Notes under the pieces: model-generated
Database searches by the model: none
Told to the model about the DNA's origin: nothing
The model's input: only the letters and a program-made list of their open reading frames with translations
Translations under genes and position numbers: made by a program
Shown: in pieces, positions 1,792-51,361 of the stretch
How positions within the stretch are numbered: position 1 is the first letter of the stretch
Layout: each line of letters begins with the position of its first letter
NCBI GenBank assembly: GCA_018401955.1
Contig: JAGYJT010000001.1
Span: forward strand, 1 to 64,000
Length of the DNA: 64,000 bases
Origin: Chitinophagales bacterium
Lineage (GTDB): Bacteria; Bacteroidota; Bacteroidia; Chitinophagales; CAIOSU01
Direction: 5' to 3'

Positions 1792-3282
1792 ATGAAAAAG
1801 CTGTTTATCATCATAGCATTTGCCGCGGCCGCTTTCACAGGCTTACAGGCTCAACAGATACCACTTTACTCACAATATTGGTATCACCCATTCCTTTATA
1901 ACCCAGCGCTCACCGGTGCTAGTGGCGATGCGCAGTTGTACTTTATTTATCGCCGCCAATGGGCTGGCTTTAATGAAGCACCTGAAACGCGCGCCATGAC
2001 CTTTGATATGCCCGTAATGAGCAACAAAGCAGGTTTTGGCGGATATGTGTACAACGACCAAAGCAGCATTTTCCGCCGTTGGGGAGGTAGCTTTACCTAT
2101 GCTTACCACATCAACTTTGCCGAAAACCACCGTTTATCAATGGGGCTTTCTGCCGGTGGTCAAGCCATCAGTATCAATTACGATGATGTATTTGTGATTG
2201 ACCCAACCGATGAGGTAATTATTAACGGCATTCGTCGCAACTCATACTTTGAGGCAGGCTTTGGTATCAATTACCAATTTAAAGATTGGACTTTGGGCCT
2301 TTCGGCTCCTAGCATTTTTGGTACTGATTTGAAGTTCTTGAGCCAAAGCGGTGTGCCGGGCTACGAATCGCAACGTCATTATGTGGCGCAAACGGCCTAC
2401 AAAATCCGTTTGGCACAGGACAAGTTCACCATACAGCCTACGGTAATGTTCCGCACTACCGAAGCCTTTAATTTCCAAATTGACGGTGGTGTATCGTTTA
2501 TGTACAAAGACTGGATTTGGTTAAACGGGATGTACCGCTACGACTATGCTGCATCAGTTGGTGGCGGCTTTAAAGTACACGACATGATTACCGTAGGGTA
2601 CTCTTACGATTTGCCAATAAACAACCTTAACGGTTACACTACTGGTAGCCACGAAATTTTGTTAGGTATTACCTTCGGCAAAAAGAAAAAAGGTGATGAA
2701 CTAAATGAAGAATTGGTTGACAAGCTAGCCGAAGTAACTGCCAAAAATGATAGCTTACTATCTGAACTTTTGGGTAAAGTTGATTCTTTAGGCGGAGAAG
2801 TGGATTCACTTAAAAATTTGCTTGAAAATGGTGAATTTGAAGGCGGTGGAGCTGACCAAGACCAACTAGATAGTTTGAACCAGCGCATTCAAAACTTAGA
2901 AGACCAATTGCAAAGCAAACTTGACTCATTGCAAAATCAAGTAAACAAAACCGTTGATAAAGTTAACGACCAAAATGAAGAGCGTACCCGCATAGTGGAC
3001 GAGGATGACCTTGAATACAAGCGCGGTGCTACCCTTGGTAACTACTTTATGGTAGTAGGTTCGTTCCGTATTGAGCAAAACTCATACAATTTCCAAGAAC
3101 AGTTAACCAGAGAGAACTTCAAGGCAGGTGTTGTTTACGATAAGAAACGTAAATGGTACTATGTTTATCTATCGCAGCCAGATAACTGGGAGAAAGGCCT
3201 GGAGCAATTGTTCAAACTACGCGAAGAGAACGAGCGTTTCCACGATGCATGGATCCACATTATGGAGAAATCATTTAAGTAA
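1792..3282 (+). CDS. PorP/SprF family T9SS membrane protein with C-terminal coiled coil and SPOR-like domain
   Basis: Signal peptide, 'QQIPLYSQYWYHPFLYNPALTGASGDAQLYFIYRRQWAGF' PorP/SprF signature; C-term 'GNYFMVVGSFRIEQNSYNFQEQL...YYVYLSQ' SPOR-like. Confidence 0.9.
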   Translation: MKKLFIIIAFAAAAFTGLQAQQIPLYSQYWYHPFLYNPALTGASGDAQLYFIYRRQWAGFNEAPETRAMTFDMPVMSNKAGFGGYVYNDQSSIFRRWGGSFTYAYHINFAENHRLSMGLSAGGQAISINYDDVFVIDPTDEVIINGIRRNSYFEAGFGINYQFKDWTLGLSAPSIFGTDLKFLSQSGVPGYESQRHYVAQTAYKIRLAQDKFTIQPTVMFRTTEAFNFQIDGGVSFMYKDWIWLNGMYRYDYAASVGGGFKVHDMITVGYSYDLPINNLNGYTTGSHEILLGITFGKKKKGDELNEELVDKLAEVTAKNDSLLSELLGKVDSLGGEVDSLKNLLENGEFEGGGADQDQLDSLNQRIQNLEDQLQSKLDSLQNQVNKTVDKVNDQNEERTRIVDEDDLEYKRGATLGNYFMVVGSFRIEQNSYNFQEQLTRENFKAGVVYDKKRKWYYVYLSQPDNWEKGLEQLFKLREENERFHDAWIHIMEKSFK

Positions 3283-3334
3283 CTAGTTGCTAGTGATTAG
3301 TAACTAGCACTTACAAATAATTACCACCAACCAT

Positions 3335-4949: not shown

Positions 4950-5005
4950 TTTATAGGTACGATTTAAGCGGTACATTACCAAACTTACCGTCATTGAGCC
5001 CCCAA

Positions 5006-5224
5006 CCGTCATTGCGAAAGCCCACTCTAAATCTCAATATGGATAATACCTTTCAAGGGCTTGTGGCAATCCCCTGAGCCGATGACAGGTGCCCACCAAC
5101 GCAATAATGCATGTCCAAAAAATGGAAGAAGGCAGTAGTGAAATTAACAGAGCCTATCTCTCAAGGGATTGCCACGTCGAAACTTGCACGCGAAAAGCGC
5201 GAAAGTCTCTCCTCGCAATGACGG
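5006..5224. repeat. Extragenic nested-palindrome repeat element (219 bp)
   Basis: Perfect 12-bp terminal inverted repeats CCGTCATTGCGA (5006-5017) / TCGCAATGACGG (5213-5224); inner inverted repeat gtggcaatcccctgag (5063-5078) / ctcaagggattgccac (5160-5175), 15/16 matched. Confidence 0.8.
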
Positions 5225-5237
5225 GGAATTTCCAAAT

Positions 5238-5615
5238 TCACTTATCTCCCCTAAACTTCCCCATATCCCTGCGTTCCTTTTTAGTGGGGCGGCCTTCTCC
5301 GCGCTCACGAGTGGGAAAACGGAAAACTGAGGGCATAGCTGCACTTTGGCGCTCTTCTGGTGGAGTTAGGTCTTCATAGCACAATTGCGCTTCGGGTGCC
5401 CCTACTCTTTTCTCAATTAGCTTAATGATTTTGTAAGTTAAGCGCTGTTGCTCTTTCGAGATGGTAAGCGTGTCGCCTACTTTCAATTCTTTGGCAGGTT
5501 TAATACTATCACCGTTGAGCTTTACCTTGCCCGCATTACATGCATCACTAGCCAAGCCACGGGTTTTAAACAACCTTATAGCCCAAAGCCATTTATCTGC
5601 ACGTACTTTTTCCAT
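5238..5615 (-). CDS. S4-domain RNA-binding protein (Hsp15-like)
   Basis: 'VRADKWLWAIRLFKTRGLASDACNAGKVKLNGDSIKPAKELKVGDTL' S4 motif. Confidence 0.9.
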   Translation of the reverse strand: MEKVRADKWLWAIRLFKTRGLASDACNAGKVKLNGDSIKPAKELKVGDTLTISKEQQRLTYKIIKLIEKRVGAPEAQLCYEDLTPPEERQSAAMPSVFRFPTRERGEGRPTKKERRDMGKFRGDK

Positions 5616-5617
5616 TT

Positions 5618-5651
5618 GGGTTGCGGGTTACGAGTTACGGGTTGCGAGTTA
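5618..5651. repeat. Period-7 extragenic array (GGGTTGC GGGTTAC GAGTTAC GGGTTGC GAGTTA)
   Basis: Direct reading: five consecutive heptamers of form G-R-G-T-T-R-C. Confidence 0.8.
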
Positions 5652-5756
5652 AATATACCCCAAAACAGCCATTTTGCTGTTTCTTTTCTTAGCGCCCTTT
5701 GCGCCATTATTTCTTTGCGATCGTTGCGGTTAATTACGAATTGAACAACCACCATA

Positions 5757-6170: not shown

Positions 6171-6278
6171 GATTGGTTATGGGTTGATTGAGTTAATGGT
6201 TATTGGTAAAAATAGGAGCAATTGTATTTGGTACAAAATCAGCCCATCGCAGCCAATTAACTAATAATCGAAAACCAG

Positions 6279-6890
6279 TTACATCTTCCCCGCTAACACC
6301 AGCAGCACCTGTATTACGCCTATCATGAAGCCCAATACGGCACCGATGAGCTCAATAAACTGGAACTCTTTTTTGAGGATGCCCATAATGAGGTTCTCCA
6401 ACGTAACGGGCGATAGCAAAGAAACCTTTTGGCGTACAATCTTTTCTACATCAAAGGTACCTTCTAGGTTTTCCATATACTTATCGATAACTGCTGGCGT
6501 TACCTGCTGCACTTCTTGAAGAAACTCGTTTTTCATTTTCACCCGCGTCTTCTTGCCCAATAGCATCGACATCATTGGGTATTTGTTCGGGAAAGTCTCA
6601 TCCAGATATTGATCTACCTTGGCTTCTATGTTGGTATTTATAGAGGCTAGATTCTTAGGGTCGTTAATGCGCTCTTTAAAATCGCTCACGTTGAGCAACT
6701 CCGTCGCAACCATTTTGCCTATTTTTTCGGCCATTGCATATTGGCGCTTCGGGAAGATACCCTGAATGTCGAAAAAGAGAATACGGATTTTTTTCCTAGG
6801 GTGGAAAAGCATTTTTACGGCTATCCAGTTAGTAAACCACCCAATGGCAGCTGCAATAACTGGTAGTAAAAGATATGATAACCATTCCAT
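6279..6890 (-). CDS. DUF445-family membrane protein
   Basis: 'IGWFTNWIAVKMLFHPRKKIRIL...GIFPKRQYAMAEKIGKMVATELL' DUF445 signature. Confidence 0.85.
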   Translation of the reverse strand: MEWLSYLLLPVIAAAIGWFTNWIAVKMLFHPRKKIRILFFDIQGIFPKRQYAMAEKIGKMVATELLNVSDFKERINDPKNLASINTNIEAKVDQYLDETFPNKYPMMSMLLGKKTRVKMKNEFLQEVQQVTPAVIDKYMENLEGTFDVEKIVRQKVSLLSPVTLENLIMGILKKEFQFIELIGAVLGFMIGVIQVLLVLAGKM

Positions 6891-14466: not shown

Positions 14467-14961
14467 TTACTCTGCTGCTTTAGGGTTCTTTTCGGGCGAG
14501 CGCTCCACGCGCAACCCAAATGCCAATACGTCCTTTAAATCGTCGGTACGCATTATCTGTTCAAATGCCAATTTGTAAGTGCCTGTTTGATTTAAGTATG
14601 CCCGCTGCTGAATATACTGCTGCACATTGCAAATATCACCAGTGCATTCGCCAAACCACTCCCCTTTTTCATCGGCCATGGTAAGTTCTAAGCGCTGCTC
14701 TTGCTCAGTACCATCTGGATAGGTAGTGTATACCATTACCCACATATTGCTATTTGGGTAAAAGGTGGTGTGGCGCAAATTAACAATAATGTCGTAATGC
14801 TGCGTGGTATCGGTAATGTCAAAATCAAACGCAACCATATGGTCTTTGTTCCATACCTGCCCCGGTATATCCTTGTTTTCCTCGTACACCTTAGCAGGGT
14901 CTTCGCACCCAACTAATGCCACGGTTGCTACAGCCACCAATATCATTAAATGCCTCATCAT
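14467..14961 (-). CDS. gldH: Gliding motility lipoprotein GldH
   Basis: Lipobox 'VALVGC'; 'YEENKDIPGQVWNKDHMVAFDFDITDT..YDIIVNLRHTTFYPNSNMWVM'; upstream neighbours are ricT and holB, as is common in Bacteroidota. Confidence 0.85.
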   Translation of the reverse strand: MMRHLMILVAVATVALVGCEDPAKVYEENKDIPGQVWNKDHMVAFDFDITDTTQHYDIIVNLRHTTFYPNSNMWVMVYTTYPDGTEQEQRLELTMADEKGEWFGECTGDICNVQQYIQQRAYLNQTGTYKLAFEQIMRTDDLKDVLAFGLRVERSPEKNPKAAE

Positions 14962-16418
14962 GACTGCTCCCCTCCTCCTTGGTTAGCATTACCGCCACCT
15001 TCACCGCCACGGTTGCGGTTGCCACGGTTACGGTTACGGCCACCTCTGTTGCGGTTATTACCACCCTCTCTTGGTTTAGCATCTCCACCACCTTCTGGTT
15101 TAGGGCCTGCATTAGCTTGTGGATTGGTATTATCACCATCGGCAGGCTTTTGTCCGCTTGAAGGACGTGGTTTATTGCGCTGGTTGCGATTTGGTTGCCC
15201 CTCGGTACGTTGGCGTGGCTGACCTTCGCTTTGGCGCTGATTTTGTTGTTGTGGCTTACCATCACGTTGGCCACCGCCGCCGCTACCAGGCTTGCGTTTT
15301 TTCTTGCGTTTTTTACCCGTTTTTTCCAGGGCGCTCAAGGTTATCTGGCCAACCGTGTCAGCATATTCAGCTTCCACTTCTTCCTCGTCAACCTCTTCAA
15401 TTATTACCAATTGGCCTAGCGGCTTGGCTTTTTTACCTGCATCGTTCAATTCAATTATCTCAGCAACTTGCTCAACTGTAAGTGGGTAAAAGTTAGGATC
15501 GCCGGCATAAGTATACCACATCAACCTTTTAAGAATATCGGTTTTGGTTAAGAAAACCACACCATTCTCTGTCTCTAGCTTATCGGCCTTTTTAGGGAAG
15601 TCTTGTAAGGCCTCCATGTAAGTATCCAACTCATAGTTAAGGCAGCATTTCAAACGACCACACTGCCCAGATAGCTTAGCAAGATTGATTGATAAGTTTT
15701 GATATCGGGCTGCGTTGGTTGATACCGATTTGAAATCGGTTAACCAAGTGGAGCAGCAGAGCTCGCGACCACAAGAACCGATACCCCCAATTTTACCCGC
15801 CTCTTGGCGGGCACCAATTTGGCGCATCTCAACCTTAACCTTAAATACACGGGCATACTCCTTAATCAATTCGCGAAAATCCACACGGTCTTCGGCGGTG
15901 TAATAAAAGGTAGCCTTCTTTTTATCAGCCTGAAACTCCACTTGGCCCACTTTCATGTCAAGCTTTAAGGTGCGGGCTATAGCACGAGCTTGCACCATGG
16001 TTTCTTGCTCCAGGGCTTTCGCCTCTTTCATCAAATCAAACTCAGCTTCAACGGGTATGCGCAAAATGTTCCTAAAGTCAGTATTGCGTTCTTTAACCTT
16101 CTTTTTGCGCATCTGCAACTTAACCAACTCACCCGAAAGCGAAATTTGGCCAATATCATATCCCATTGAGGTATCTACCACTACCCAGTCGCCAGTGCTT
16201 ACCGGTACTTTGTTATCGTTTTTATAAAACTCCTTGCGGCTACCCCCGTTAAACGAAATCTCGTAATAATGCGGGCCATCGTTATTGCCAAAAGCTATCG
16301 GCATTTCGGCAAGCCAATCAAAAGTGTTTAACATATTGCAAGCACCGCTAGCACAACTGCCATGCGATTTGCAGCCCTTCGGCAATCCATTATCTGTGGC
16401 ACAACTAGTGCATCCCAT
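14958..16418 (-). CDS. ricT: PSP1 domain protein, RicT family, with Cys-rich N-terminus and G/R/N-rich tail
   Basis: 'GDWVVVDTSMGYDIGQI', 'MRQIGARQEAGKIGGIGSCGRELCCSTWL', 'SGQCGRLKCCLNYE' PSP1 hallmarks. Confidence 0.93.
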   Translation of the reverse strand: MGCTSCATDNGLPKGCKSHGSCASGACNMLNTFDWLAEMPIAFGNNDGPHYYEISFNGGSRKEFYKNDNKVPVSTGDWVVVDTSMGYDIGQISLSGELVKLQMRKKKVKERNTDFRNILRIPVEAEFDLMKEAKALEQETMVQARAIARTLKLDMKVGQVEFQADKKKATFYYTAEDRVDFRELIKEYARVFKVKVEMRQIGARQEAGKIGGIGSCGRELCCSTWLTDFKSVSTNAARYQNLSINLAKLSGQCGRLKCCLNYELDTYMEALQDFPKKADKLETENGVVFLTKTDILKRLMWYTYAGDPNFYPLTVEQVAEIIELNDAGKKAKPLGQLVIIEEVDEEEVEAEYADTVGQITLSALEKTGKKRKKKRKPGSGGGGQRDGKPQQQNQRQSEGQPRQRTEGQPNRNQRNKPRPSSGQKPADGDNTNPQANAGPKPEGGGDAKPREGGNNRNRGGRNRNRGNRNRGGEGGGNANQGGGEQS

Positions 16419-16426
16419 ATCTAATT

Positions 16427-16459
16427 ATTTACGAAGTACGATTTACGAAGTACGATTTA
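16427..16459. repeat. Tandem extragenic repeat, unit ATTTACGAAGTACG (2 x 14 bp plus partial)
   Basis: Direct reading: atttacgaagtacg atttacgaagtacg attta. Confidence 0.85.
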
Positions 16460-16512
16460 GTTTTAGCTAAATGCCCAACGCCGCACTGTTATTTTAAAAA
16501 TCCATTCAACAT

Positions 16513-16539
16513 GGTACCATGTACATCGTACATTGTACC
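16513..16539. repeat. Period-7 extragenic array (GGTACCA TGTACAT CGTACAT TGTACC)
   Basis: Direct reading: N-GTAC-NN heptamers adjacent to the holB stop. Confidence 0.7.
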
Positions 16540-17667
16540 TCAAACTTTAACCAGCACCTTCACCAGCTTACTTACCCTAATGCTTAAATCAAGCATCAGC
16601 ATTTTGCCACTGGCATTGCGTTCTATATGGTAATAAGCCTCATTGAGCCAATCGGCAAAACGGGCCATTTTTTCTTGATCAAACTTAGCAGACATCTCGC
16701 TAACTACACTTTTCTCAGAACCCGTAAGCACCTCTGATGGTCTGTTGTACACCTGTAAATATAATACTTCCCTGAGCATGTGCAGCGCATACAGCATAAA
16801 GGTTTTTTGCGACTCGCGGCCCAGTGCACCAAAGGTATCAGACCACTTTACGTAAGCCATCGGATCATTATTACGCGACAAAAGCGCACCCATCCACTGC
16901 TCAAACAAACCTGCATGTTCTGCCGCGGCATGGTTTATAAGATCTTGCGCCTCAATATAGTCACCATTGGCCAAACCTGCAATTCGGTATGCCTCTTCAG
17001 GCTGCAATTGTTGTTTTTCAACTAAAGCATCTGCCAGCTCTTGTTGGTTAATTGGCGATACCTTTATTATCTGTGTGCGCGATATGATAGTATTTAGCAC
17101 CGTCTCAATATTCTCGGCTACCAGCAAAAAAACCGTTTGTGCAGGCGGTTCTTCCAAAATTTTAAGTAGTGTATTGCCCTCTTTACCCAAAAACTCCGGC
17201 AACCATATCAGCATTATTTTATAACCCTGCTCGTATGCCTTAAAGCTCAACCTGCGCATCACATCGTGGCACTCGGTAATAGGTATGTTGGGCTGCTTGT
17301 TTTCAGCATTGAACTTTACCATCCACCTATGTAGACTCAAATACGGGCTTTGATTTAGCACCTCGCGCCACTCTGTAATACTTTCAGTACTTGTTTTGCG
17401 CTTCTCTACACTTGGGAACGGAAAACTAAAGTGCAAATCAGGGTGCGCCAGCTTTTGCATTTTTAGGCAGCTCGGGCACTCGCCACAACTGTCATCGGGT
17501 TGCGGGTTAGCGCAGTTAAGAAACTGCGCATAAGCCAAAGCAATAGGCAAACCACCATAGCCTAGCTGCCCCAAAAACATTTGGGCATGGGGCACATGCC
17601 CTTCGCGCACTTGCGAAATGAGCTGCTGCTTTAAGTGGCCTTGGCCTATGATGTCTTTAAACTGCAT
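16540..17667 (-). CDS. holB: DNA polymerase III subunit delta'
   Basis: 'QFKDIIGQGHLKQQLISQVREGHVPHAQMFLG', 'CGECPSCLKMQKLAHPDLHF', 'GNTLLKILEEPPAQTVFLLVAEN'. Confidence 0.93.
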   Translation of the reverse strand: MQFKDIIGQGHLKQQLISQVREGHVPHAQMFLGQLGYGGLPIALAYAQFLNCANPQPDDSCGECPSCLKMQKLAHPDLHFSFPFPSVEKRKTSTESITEWREVLNQSPYLSLHRWMVKFNAENKQPNIPITECHDVMRRLSFKAYEQGYKIMLIWLPEFLGKEGNTLLKILEEPPAQTVFLLVAENIETVLNTIISRTQIIKVSPINQQELADALVEKQQLQPEEAYRIAGLANGDYIEAQDLINHAAAEHAGLFEQWMGALLSRNNDPMAYVKWSDTFGALGRESQKTFMLYALHMLREVLYLQVYNRPSEVLTGSEKSVVSEMSAKFDQEKMARFADWLNEAYYHIERNASGKMLMLDLSIRVSKLVKVLVKV

Positions 17668-17740: not shown

Positions 17741-17770
17741 GTGTCATGGTGAGCGTAGTCGAACCATGGC
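17741..17770. repeat. Fragment resembling a dispersed 'GTCATnnTGAGCGnAGTCGAA' extragenic repeat
   Basis: gtgtcatggtgagcgtagtcgaaccatggc; resemblance judged from memory, only one fragment here. Confidence 0.4.
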
Positions 17771-17806
17771 GGCATCGACTCTAACTCAATTACCTACAAC
17801 AGGAAC

Positions 17807-21410: not shown

Positions 21411-21534
21411 CGATGGTCCATAGTCCACGGGACATGGATTCCAAGCTTCGTTTAATATCGTTAGTATCAGCTTGGAGTAAGCTATTTACATGGTAACTAA
21501 AGTACATAAAACTATGGACTATGGACCATTGACA
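21411..21534. repeat. Extragenic inverted pair of short-word repeats (CGATGGTCCATAGTCC ... GGACTATGGACCATTG) with nested inner palindrome
   Basis: Outer arms 15/16 complementary; inner arms ccaagct (21441-21447) / agcttgg (21469-21475). Confidence 0.8.
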
Positions 21535-21638
21535 ATCGTCCAACTAAATATTTCACCAACTATACTTGGGTATGATAGCCAAAGCACCTATTTTTACCCT
21601 CGCAAAACATACCAAGATAATTTACCTTATAACCGATC

Positions 21639-42629: not shown

Positions 42630-42650
42630 AGTAGGGCAAAAATAATAAAT

Positions 42651-42737
42651 AGTTACGGGTTGCGAGTTTTGAGTTTCGAGTTATTGAAAAAAGTCCATTT
42701 AATAAAAAACCACCAACCCGTAACCCGCAACCCGCAA
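42651..42737. repeat. Inverted pair of period-7 extragenic arrays (GGGTTRC/GAGTTNC words)
   Basis: Left arm agttacgggttgcgagttttgagtttcgagttat (42651-42684), right arm caacccgtaacccgcaacccgcaac (42713-42737), opposite orientation. Confidence 0.8.
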
Positions 42738-42745
42738 CTAAAAGC

Positions 42746-42753
42746 TAACTTTG
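42746..42753 (+). promoter_or_regulatory. Candidate -7 element TAACTTTG upstream of the asparaginase-domain gene
   Basis: TANNTTTG match 25 nt before ATG at 42779, immediately after the repeat array; no clear -33 TTG. Confidence 0.4.
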
Positions 42754-42778
42754 CACCCACAAAACAACCACAACACCT

Positions 42779-51215: not shown

Positions 51216-51361
51216 GCAATTTGAAAATGTGCCAATTTGAAAATTTGAAAATTGATTGAACACTATCTTTAAGCTACTGTGTTCTGCCTCAAACGAATGA
51301 AGCTAATTTGGGTTATCATTTCGTTTTTAGGCACATTTTCAAATTTTCAAATTAACACATT
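51216..51361. repeat. Inverted pair of AATTTGAAAA-word extragenic arrays
   Basis: Left: caatttgaaaatgtgccaatttgaaaatttgaaaattg (51218-51255); right: ggcacattttcaaattttcaaattaacacattg (51330-51362), reverse complementary words. Confidence 0.75.

What the first reader, a model, noticed from the sequence alone, without database searches (positions are those of the whole stretch)
16427..16539. Two different short-word repeat arrays in one 120-bp gap, part of a window-wide family
Between ricT and holB there is a 14-bp tandem (ATTTACGAAGTACG)x2 and then a distinct period-7 array N-GTAC-NN. Similar arrays using different words occur at 3280-3310 (NNCTAGT/NNTTAGT), 5618-5651 (GRGTTRC), 21411-21534 (TGGTCCATAGTCC), 42651-42737 (GRGTTRC again) and 51216-51361 (AATTTGAAA). 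All are intergenic. The shared property is the period and imperfect word repetition, not the sequence. This resembles the heptanucleotide STRRs described in cyanobacteria, but here the word changes per locus. Word diversity with conserved period suggests a common generating process rather than copying of one element.
Basis: partly seen in the sequence, partly recalled or inferred. Interest (0 to 1): 0.6.

Follow-up and report, generated by a model that had tools for sequence, protein, structure and literature searches.

The report
Seven-base arrays bordering S23-protein elements
The odd seven-letter repeats between genes are paired, mirror-image ends of small inserted DNA elements whose full-size versions carry a gene for the S23 'four-helix-bundle' protein known from elements inside ribosomal RNA genes, which ties together repeats seen for decades in cyanobacteria and other bacteria without a known cause.

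Summary
The arrays are real: 66 lag-7 segments in 64 kb of this genome's intergenic DNA against 1 expected, almost none in genes. The two arrays at 16427-16459 and 16509-16538 are not different kinds. They are inward-facing copies of one word (TACGA type) at the two ends of the gap. This is the genus-wide rule: 112 inward against 24 outward arrays, and the same word at both ends in 21 of 28 gaps (5.7 expected).

The vocabulary is small (about ten words) and shared between loci. At one site, sister species carry different word pairs between the same flanks.

The full-size version encloses a gene for the S23/23S-rRNA intervening-sequence protein (PF05635). In the genus, 13 of 14 testable copies have arrays on both sides and 12 are inverted; the count is 0 of 549 ordinary genes and 0 of 22 holB loci. 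The pattern recurs across Bacteroidota, in cyanobacteria and in Proteobacteria. Sampled genomes without this protein had no arrays in 366 kb.

Best reading: ends of mostly ORF-less relatives of S23-protein (IVS-like) elements. How they move, whether the protein reads the word, and whether RNase III trims them are inferred. I found no paper making this link.

The parts
16427..16459 (+). Left arm of the ricT-holB cassette: (ATTTACGAAGTACG)x2.4, TACGA word
   Evidence: score 20 to the arm of the TACGA S23-protein element L240
16460..16508 (.). Unique interior of the cassette, no ORF; not homologous to other cassettes or to S23-protein genes
16509..16538 (-). Right arm of the same cassette, same word inverted (reverse complement GTACAATGTACGATGTACATGGTAC); begins 1 nt after the holB stop codon
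   Evidence: score 14 to the L240 arm
14958..16418 (-). PSP1/RicT-family gene downstream of the cassette
   Evidence: Pfam PSP1 2.8e-25
16540..17667 (-). holB (DNA polymerase III delta') upstream of the cassette
   Evidence: Pfam DNA_pol3_delta2 3.1e-37
42651..42687 (+). Left arm, GRGTTRC word
   Evidence: score 21 to L230 arm; replaced by a GTCCAT pair in G003
42714..42738 (-). Right arm, GRGTTRC word inverted
   Evidence: score 23 to L230 arm
21411..21437 (+). Left arm, GTCCAT word
   Evidence: score 17 to L078 arm
21511..21536 (-). Right arm, GTCCAT word inverted
   Evidence: score 16 to L078 arm
51216..51253 (+). Left arm, AATTTGAAA word, period 8
   Evidence: score 23 to L233 arm
51335..51361 (-). 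Right arm, AATTTGAAA word inverted
   Evidence: score 19 to L233 arm
6171..6207 (+).
   Evidence: score 14 to L077 arm
6250..6285 (-). Right arm, GGTTATT word inverted, degenerate
   Evidence: score 14 to L077 arm
5618..5651 (+). Single GRGTTRC arm; the other end of the gap carries a different word (CGCAAAG type)
   Evidence: score 29 to L230 arm
3279..3310 (+). Single TAGTRAY arm overlapping the stop codon of the upstream gene; no clear partner and no matching S23-protein element found

Best explanation
The arrays are the paired terminal arms of small, IVS-like inserted elements. An element is: arm of a 7-8 bp word, an interior, and the same word inverted. The full-size form (about 450-550 bp) carries a gene for the S23 / 23S-rRNA intervening-sequence protein (PF05635, TIGR02436 four-helix bundle). 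The commoner form, including the ricT-holB cassette at 16427-16538, is ORF-less (75-250 bp). Shown here: inward orientation, the same word at both ends, borders that nearly touch stop codons, the S23-protein gene as the only cargo seen, word families matching the S23-protein lineages of the genus, and replacement by another element at the same site in sister species. Inferred: (a) the oligomeric S23 protein (or a partner) recognises its word at both ends and mediates insertion or exchange, acting in trans on ORF-less forms; (b) in transcripts the arms pair in any 7-nt register and can be cut by RNase III, as in 23S rRNA IVSs, so insertions inside operons are tolerated; (c) slippage changes arm length and palindrome loss clears old elements, giving the turnover. 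Confidence in the S23-element identity alone is about 0.85; in the full mechanism about 0.45.
For: Inward orientation regardless of neighbouring gene strand: 112 against 24. Same word at both ends: 21 of 28 gaps, shuffled 5.7, maximum 13 of 2000. Outside the genus the pair is inverted 48 against direct 17 in loci picked by one word, random about 1:1. Link to the S23-protein gene: the ORFs of about 115-128 aa enclosed by inverted arrays were S23/four-helix-bundle proteins (family call for the genus copies). In the genus, arrays flank both sides in 13 of 14 testable copies and are inverted in 12 of 14; holB control 0 of 22; ordinary genes 0 of 549, of similar size 0 of 74. Bacteroidota-wide 18 of 27, a further 14 of 20. 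Cyanobacterial and Gemmatimonadota plasmids: arrays on both sides in 10 of 12, strictly inverted in 7 of 12. Two non-Bacteroidota loci: 2 of 2. Genome level: genomes without a PF05635 match had 0 arrays in 366 kb; rich genomes 26 in 388 kb of stretches not chosen for arrays. Word and protein lineage: 89% of 104 ORF-less arrays in the genus match an S23-element arm of the genus; G001's own word variant GTC.GT is on its S23 element and its ORF-less arrays and absent from 612 kb of G000; word similarity rises with protein identity. Site replacement. Published support: the Coxiella 23S IVS carries an S23p ORF, inverted termini, tandem heptamers (GACAGAT) and RNase III excision (PMC4990558). Xanthomonas GGGAATC heptamers occur as 70-75 inverted pairs near ORF ends (PMC4692102), and an S23 protein of X. 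campestris has been solved (2gsc; PMC4990558).
Against: Interiors of ORF-less cassettes are unique and not S23-gene remnants, so they are not ordinary deletion derivatives copied as units. Within a word family, an arm fits its own partner no better than any other partner (19.2 against 19.6 +/- 0.8 shuffled), so there is no base-level covariation. RNA folding energy shows no bias to the transcribed strand (12 of 28), so RNA-level selection is not supported. The TACGA S23 element was found in G002-G004 but not in G000, a 79% complete assembly with only two PF05635 genes. In G340 and G347 the sampled ORF-less arrays did not match the few S23-element arms sampled. G005 has nine PF05635 genes but no array in the 20 kb read. 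No clean empty-site insertion with a target duplication was seen.
Confidence: 0.68

Rival explanations
1. Plain simple-sequence repeats made by replication slippage with a 7-bp preference and tolerated only between genes; the pairing arises by hairpin template switching (quasi-palindrome correction).
For: Copy-number change between G003 and G004 in an AGACACA array; period preference is known for long simple repeats in bacteria (as reviewed in PMC4679880).
Against: The same words recur at many unlinked loci. Arms of one cassette are not more alike than arms of other cassettes of that word, contrary to template switching. 0 of 549 ordinary genes but 12 of 14 S23-protein genes are bordered by inverted arrays. 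Genomes without a PF05635 match had none.
Confidence: 0.12
2. Conventional miniature transposable elements (MITEs) or REP/REPIN elements moved by a transposase or by RAYT (Y1_Tnp), with the S23 gene as a passenger.
For: Dispersed, intergenic, inverted ends, swaps at sites. Two Y1_Tnp matches exist in G000. Genuine REP-like sequences also occur in the window.
Against: Interiors are not conserved between copies. About ten unrelated words share one architecture. Arms are tandem arrays, not fixed palindromes. The cargo is always the S23 protein. The Y1_Tnp matches are weak and the search gives no indication of an associated word.
Confidence: 0.1
3. Hairpins selected for transcript ends: bidirectional terminators or mRNA-stabilising structures that happen to use repeated words.
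For: Arms abut stop codons (median 2-3 nt; 78-86% within 10 nt) more closely than start codons; they fold into long hairpins.
Against: No preference for convergent gaps (co-directional 18%, convergent 24%, divergent 22%). No folding bias to the transcribed strand. Whole cassettes are swapped for unrelated ones between species whose proteins are 97.6% identical. Absent from other genera of the family in the stretches read.
Confidence: 0.07
4. Binding-site arrays for a post-transcriptional regulator near start codons, as proposed for TAACTGA in Beggiatoaceae (MacGregor 2015, PMC4679880).
For: Heptamer arrays near gene starts in a related phenomenon.
Against: Arms lie closer to stops than to starts. 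Orientation is fixed by gap end, not by gene direction. Many words exist per genome.
Confidence: 0.03

Closest known systems
23S rRNA intervening sequences (IVS) with S23p ORF, e.g. Coxiella burnetii (PMC4990558); also reported in Leptospira and Brucella
   Same: S23 protein ORF or (in other bacteria) none, complementary ends, variable occupancy of fixed sites, heptameric tandem repeats at the 5' end of the Coxiella IVS
   Different: Here they lie between protein-coding genes, not in rRNA; arms are word arrays; many words per genome; RNase III excision not shown
Cyanobacterial heptanucleotide STRRs (Calothrix, Nostoc)
   Same: 7-bp words, imperfect, intergenic; such arrays border S23-protein genes on cyanobacterial plasmids
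   Different: STRRs were described (to my knowledge) as single direct-repeat arrays, not as inverted ends of an element
GGGAATC heptamer repeats of Xanthomonas (Rehm 2015, PMC4692102)
   Same: Heptamers near ORF ends irrespective of ORF orientation, 70-75 convergent inverted pairs per genome; X. campestris encodes an S23 protein (2gsc)
   Different: One G-rich word, interpreted through G-quadruplexes; no link to S23-protein genes in the passages read
TAACTGA direct repeats of Beggiatoaceae (MacGregor 2015, PMC4679880)
   Same: Abundant intergenic heptamer arrays, patchy across phyla including Bacteroidetes and cyanobacteria
   Different: One word, placed upstream of starts, almost no inverted pairs
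REP/REPIN elements and MITEs
   Same: Dispersed intergenic inverted repeats, sometimes ORF-less partners of a coding element
   Different: Conserved sequence or interior and a transposase; here only the word is shared and the cargo is S23 protein

Membership tests
23S rRNA intervening sequence (IVS) | Insertion within an rRNA gene | tested here: not met
   Window cassettes lie between protein genes; no Rfam match in the window or in 20 S23-element loci
23S rRNA intervening sequence (IVS) | Complementary ends able to pair | tested here: met
   Inverted same-word arms, at word level
23S rRNA intervening sequence (IVS) | S23 protein ORF in some members | tested here: met
   Genus copies; the window's own cassettes are ORF-less
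23S rRNA intervening sequence (IVS) | Excision of the transcript by RNase III | not testable with these tools
   No RNA data; no strand bias of folding
23S rRNA intervening sequence (IVS) | Variable elements at the same site in relatives | tested here: met
Cyanobacterial STRR | Imperfect tandem heptanucleotides, intergenic, dispersed | tested here: met
Cyanobacterial STRR | Single direct arrays without a paired inverted arm | tested here: not met
   Inverted pairs dominate where both ends carry arrays; cyanobacterial S23-protein genes show paired arms too
MITE | Copies share interior sequence | tested here: not met
   Only orthologous cassettes share interiors
MITE | Target-site duplication | tested here: inconclusive
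   No clean empty-site pair found; flanks flush with stop codons
REP/REPIN with RAYT | RAYT gene bordered by the same repeat | tested here: inconclusive
   Two weak Y1_Tnp loci; GTCCAT arrays lie in one of them but hundreds of bp from the match
Intrinsic or bidirectional terminator | Preference for convergent or gene-end gaps | tested here: not met
   co 18%, conv 24%, div 22%

The most novel reading that the evidence does not exclude
The arms are written, not copied: an S23-protein-containing complex adds a lineage-specific heptamer by repeated copying of a short template (telomerase- or reverse-transcriptase-like) to both ends of whatever DNA is being inserted. That would explain why only the word, never the exact sequence or the interior, is shared between cassettes and why the two arms match by word but not base by base.
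Probability: 0.1. Interest if true: 0.95.

Novelty: new variant of a known kind. Interest (0 to 1): 0.72.

Why it matters
Heptanucleotide arrays have been reported piecemeal in cyanobacteria, Xanthomonas and Beggiatoaceae without a cause. Tying them to S23-protein elements would give them one explanation, turn IVSs from an rRNA curiosity into a widespread class of intergenic elements, and make the function of a large uncharacterised protein family (four-helix bundle, TIGR02436) testable: does each protein bind its own word? It would also explain a visible share of intergenic turnover between close species.

Tried and rejected
1) Two unrelated arrays in one gap: rejected, same word inverted. 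2) Words private to each locus: rejected, about ten recurring families. 3) Terminator function: no convergent bias. 4) Fine RNA base-pair covariation between arms: not found. 5) Strand bias of RNA folding: none. 6) ORF-less cassettes as deletion derivatives of S23 genes: interiors do not match. 7) Rfam families: none in the window or in 20 S23-element loci. 8) RAYT/Y1 transposase as driver: only two weak matches. 10) Searches of the held papers found none linking S23/four-helix-bundle proteins with heptamer arrays, apart from the heptamers noted in the Coxiella IVS. 11) Clustering all arrays by shared 6-mers chained nearly everything into one cluster, so word families were defined by hand with orientation chosen by eye; the within-family consistency does not depend on that choice.

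Full report
What is there. The gap between the ricT-type gene (14958-16418, minus strand; PSP1 domain) and holB (16540-17667, minus strand) is 121 bp. It starts with ATTTACGAAGTACGATTTACGAAGTACGATTTA and ends with GTACCATGTACATCGTACATTGTAC. Reversed and complemented, the second is GTACAATGTACGATGTACATGGTAC, a variant of the first word. The arrays are one inverted pair around a unique interior.

Is it more than chance. I read 460 kb of the same genome (window plus L009-L028), called genes with a simple hexamer model and compared intergenic DNA with shuffles. Lag-7 identity is 0.289 in gaps, 0.264 after shuffling and 0.249 in genes. Lag-7 segments scoring at least 11 number 66 against 1.0 expected, lag 8 gives 13 against 1, and lags 4-6 and 9-13 show no excess. 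The genome is a 3.49-Mb, 153-contig assembly of 79% completeness; four congeners G001-G004 are held.

The architecture. With nine word families defined by hand, arrays point inward from the ends of the gap whatever the strands of the neighbouring genes (112 against 24), and when both ends carry arrays the word is the same in 21 of 28 gaps (shuffled 5.7 +/- 2.1, maximum 13 of 2000). Gap types are equally affected (co-directional 18%, convergent 24%, divergent 22%). Arms almost touch stop codons (median 2-3 nt) and lie 11-19 nt from start codons. In some cases the stop codon is part of the arm.

Turnover. The ricT-holB gap holds a TACGA pair in G000, an AATTTGAAA pair in G002-G004, and AGTATCA/GTTAC arrays in G001; it is 2 bp long in another genus of the family. 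At 42630-42778, G000 and G004 have a GRGTTRC pair and G003 a GTCCAT pair between conserved flanks. G003 and G004, at a median 97.6% protein identity, differ at 26 of 92 gaps, some by whole-cassette replacement and others by differences in gene calls or small indels. Over the gaps where both have arrays, the word is shared in 12 and different in 2. One array changed copy number between them, as slippage would do.

The coding form. Searching for ORFs enclosed by inverted arrays returned four-helix-bundle S23 proteins in G000, G004, a Pseudoalteromonas and a proteobacterial MAG, besides ordinary genes and short spurious frames. Starting instead from PF05635 genes, independently of arrays, 13 of 14 testable copies in the genus have arrays on both sides and 12 are inverted, each lineage with its own word; holB loci gave 0 of 22. 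Ordinary genes gave 0 of 549. Bacteroidota-wide the count is 18 of 27 and 14 of 20 in a further set. On cyanobacterial and Gemmatimonadota plasmids, 10 of 12 have arrays on both sides and 7 of 12 pass the strict inverted test. There the genes sit at operon junctions such as cas6|cas4 (twice), cas10|cmr3 and nrdB|nrdA.

Genome-level link. The GRGTTRC word alone occurs as arrays in many phyla (at least 116 loci against an estimated 7-8 by chance at even base composition) but is patchy within the order. In stretches sampled from Bacteroidota genomes with no PF05635 match there was no array in 366 kb; in PF05635-rich genomes there were 26 in 388 kb. This sampling was not corrected for phylogeny.

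Word and protein lineage. 89% of 104 ORF-less arrays of the genus match an arm of an S23 element of the genus, and every paired array of the window matches one word by word; the lone array at 3279 does not. The G001-specific variant GTC.GT appears in its S23 element and its ORF-less arrays but not in 612 kb of G000. Word similarity rises with protein identity (mean 14.7 above 65% identity, 6.9 below), though a few of the closest pairs may be unrecognised orthologous loci. At orthologous sites, proteins at least 85% identical keep their arms, whereas proteins 34-61% identical have unrelated or only weakly similar arms, so the whole element has been replaced. Between the CoA-transferase subunit genes (named from their sequence, not by a family search), G004 and G002 have one S23 protein with AATTTGAAA arms, G003 another (57% identical) with ATGTACC arms, and G001 an ORF-less CACTAAG pair.

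What does not fit a simple picture. Interiors of ORF-less cassettes are unique. Arms match their partner only at the level of the word. Folding shows no preference for the transcribed strand. So neither standard MITE copying nor strict RNA hairpin selection is supported. What is constant is the word at both ends and the S23 protein as the only cargo.

How it probably works. By analogy with 23S rRNA IVSs, which carry S23p or no ORF, have complementary ends, occupy fixed sites variably and are cut out by RNase III (PMC4990558), I propose that S23 elements insert at gene junctions, that the protein or its partner reads the word at both ends, and that the arms pair in transcripts so that insertions inside operons are harmless. 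The Coxiella IVS itself has tandem GACAGAT heptamers at its 5' end, with strain-to-strain copy number change. None of these mechanistic steps is shown here.

Relation to known work. Inverted pairs of GGGAATC heptamers near ORF ends are already described in Xanthomonas (PMC4692102), single-word arrays in Beggiatoaceae (PMC4679880), and STRRs in cyanobacteria. The link between them and S23-protein elements was not found in the papers searched; most subscription papers are not in that library. Hence: a new variant and a unifying explanation of known kinds, rather than something categorically new.

Noticed in passing
window 5000-5240: Long inverted REP-like element with ends CGTCATTGCGA / TCGCAATGACG between two genes, replaced in G004 by TACGA and AATTTGAAA arrays.
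   Followed up: no
window 17745-17775: Imperfect palindrome TCATGGTGAGCGTAGTCGAACCATGG, a REP-like sequence also seen at the same gap in G001.
   Followed up: no
window 5695-5735; G001 holB-ricT gap (L033); L328: A further class of inverted word arrays of longer period (CGCAAAG / CACTAAG type) in the same gap positions; may be the same phenomenon with another period.
   Followed up: partly
L333, L337, L338: S23-protein genes with heptamer arms sit inside CRISPR operons of cyanobacterial plasmids (cas6|cas4 in two genera, cas10|cmr3 in a third).
   Followed up: partly
L113 (Chloroflexaceae MAG Prado088): 31 period-7 arrays in 8 kb, many as tight inverted pairs: an extreme density.
   Followed up: no
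L282, L251, L293: Tandem runs of several different S23-protein genes within a few kb, at the same site in related genomes.
   Followed up: no
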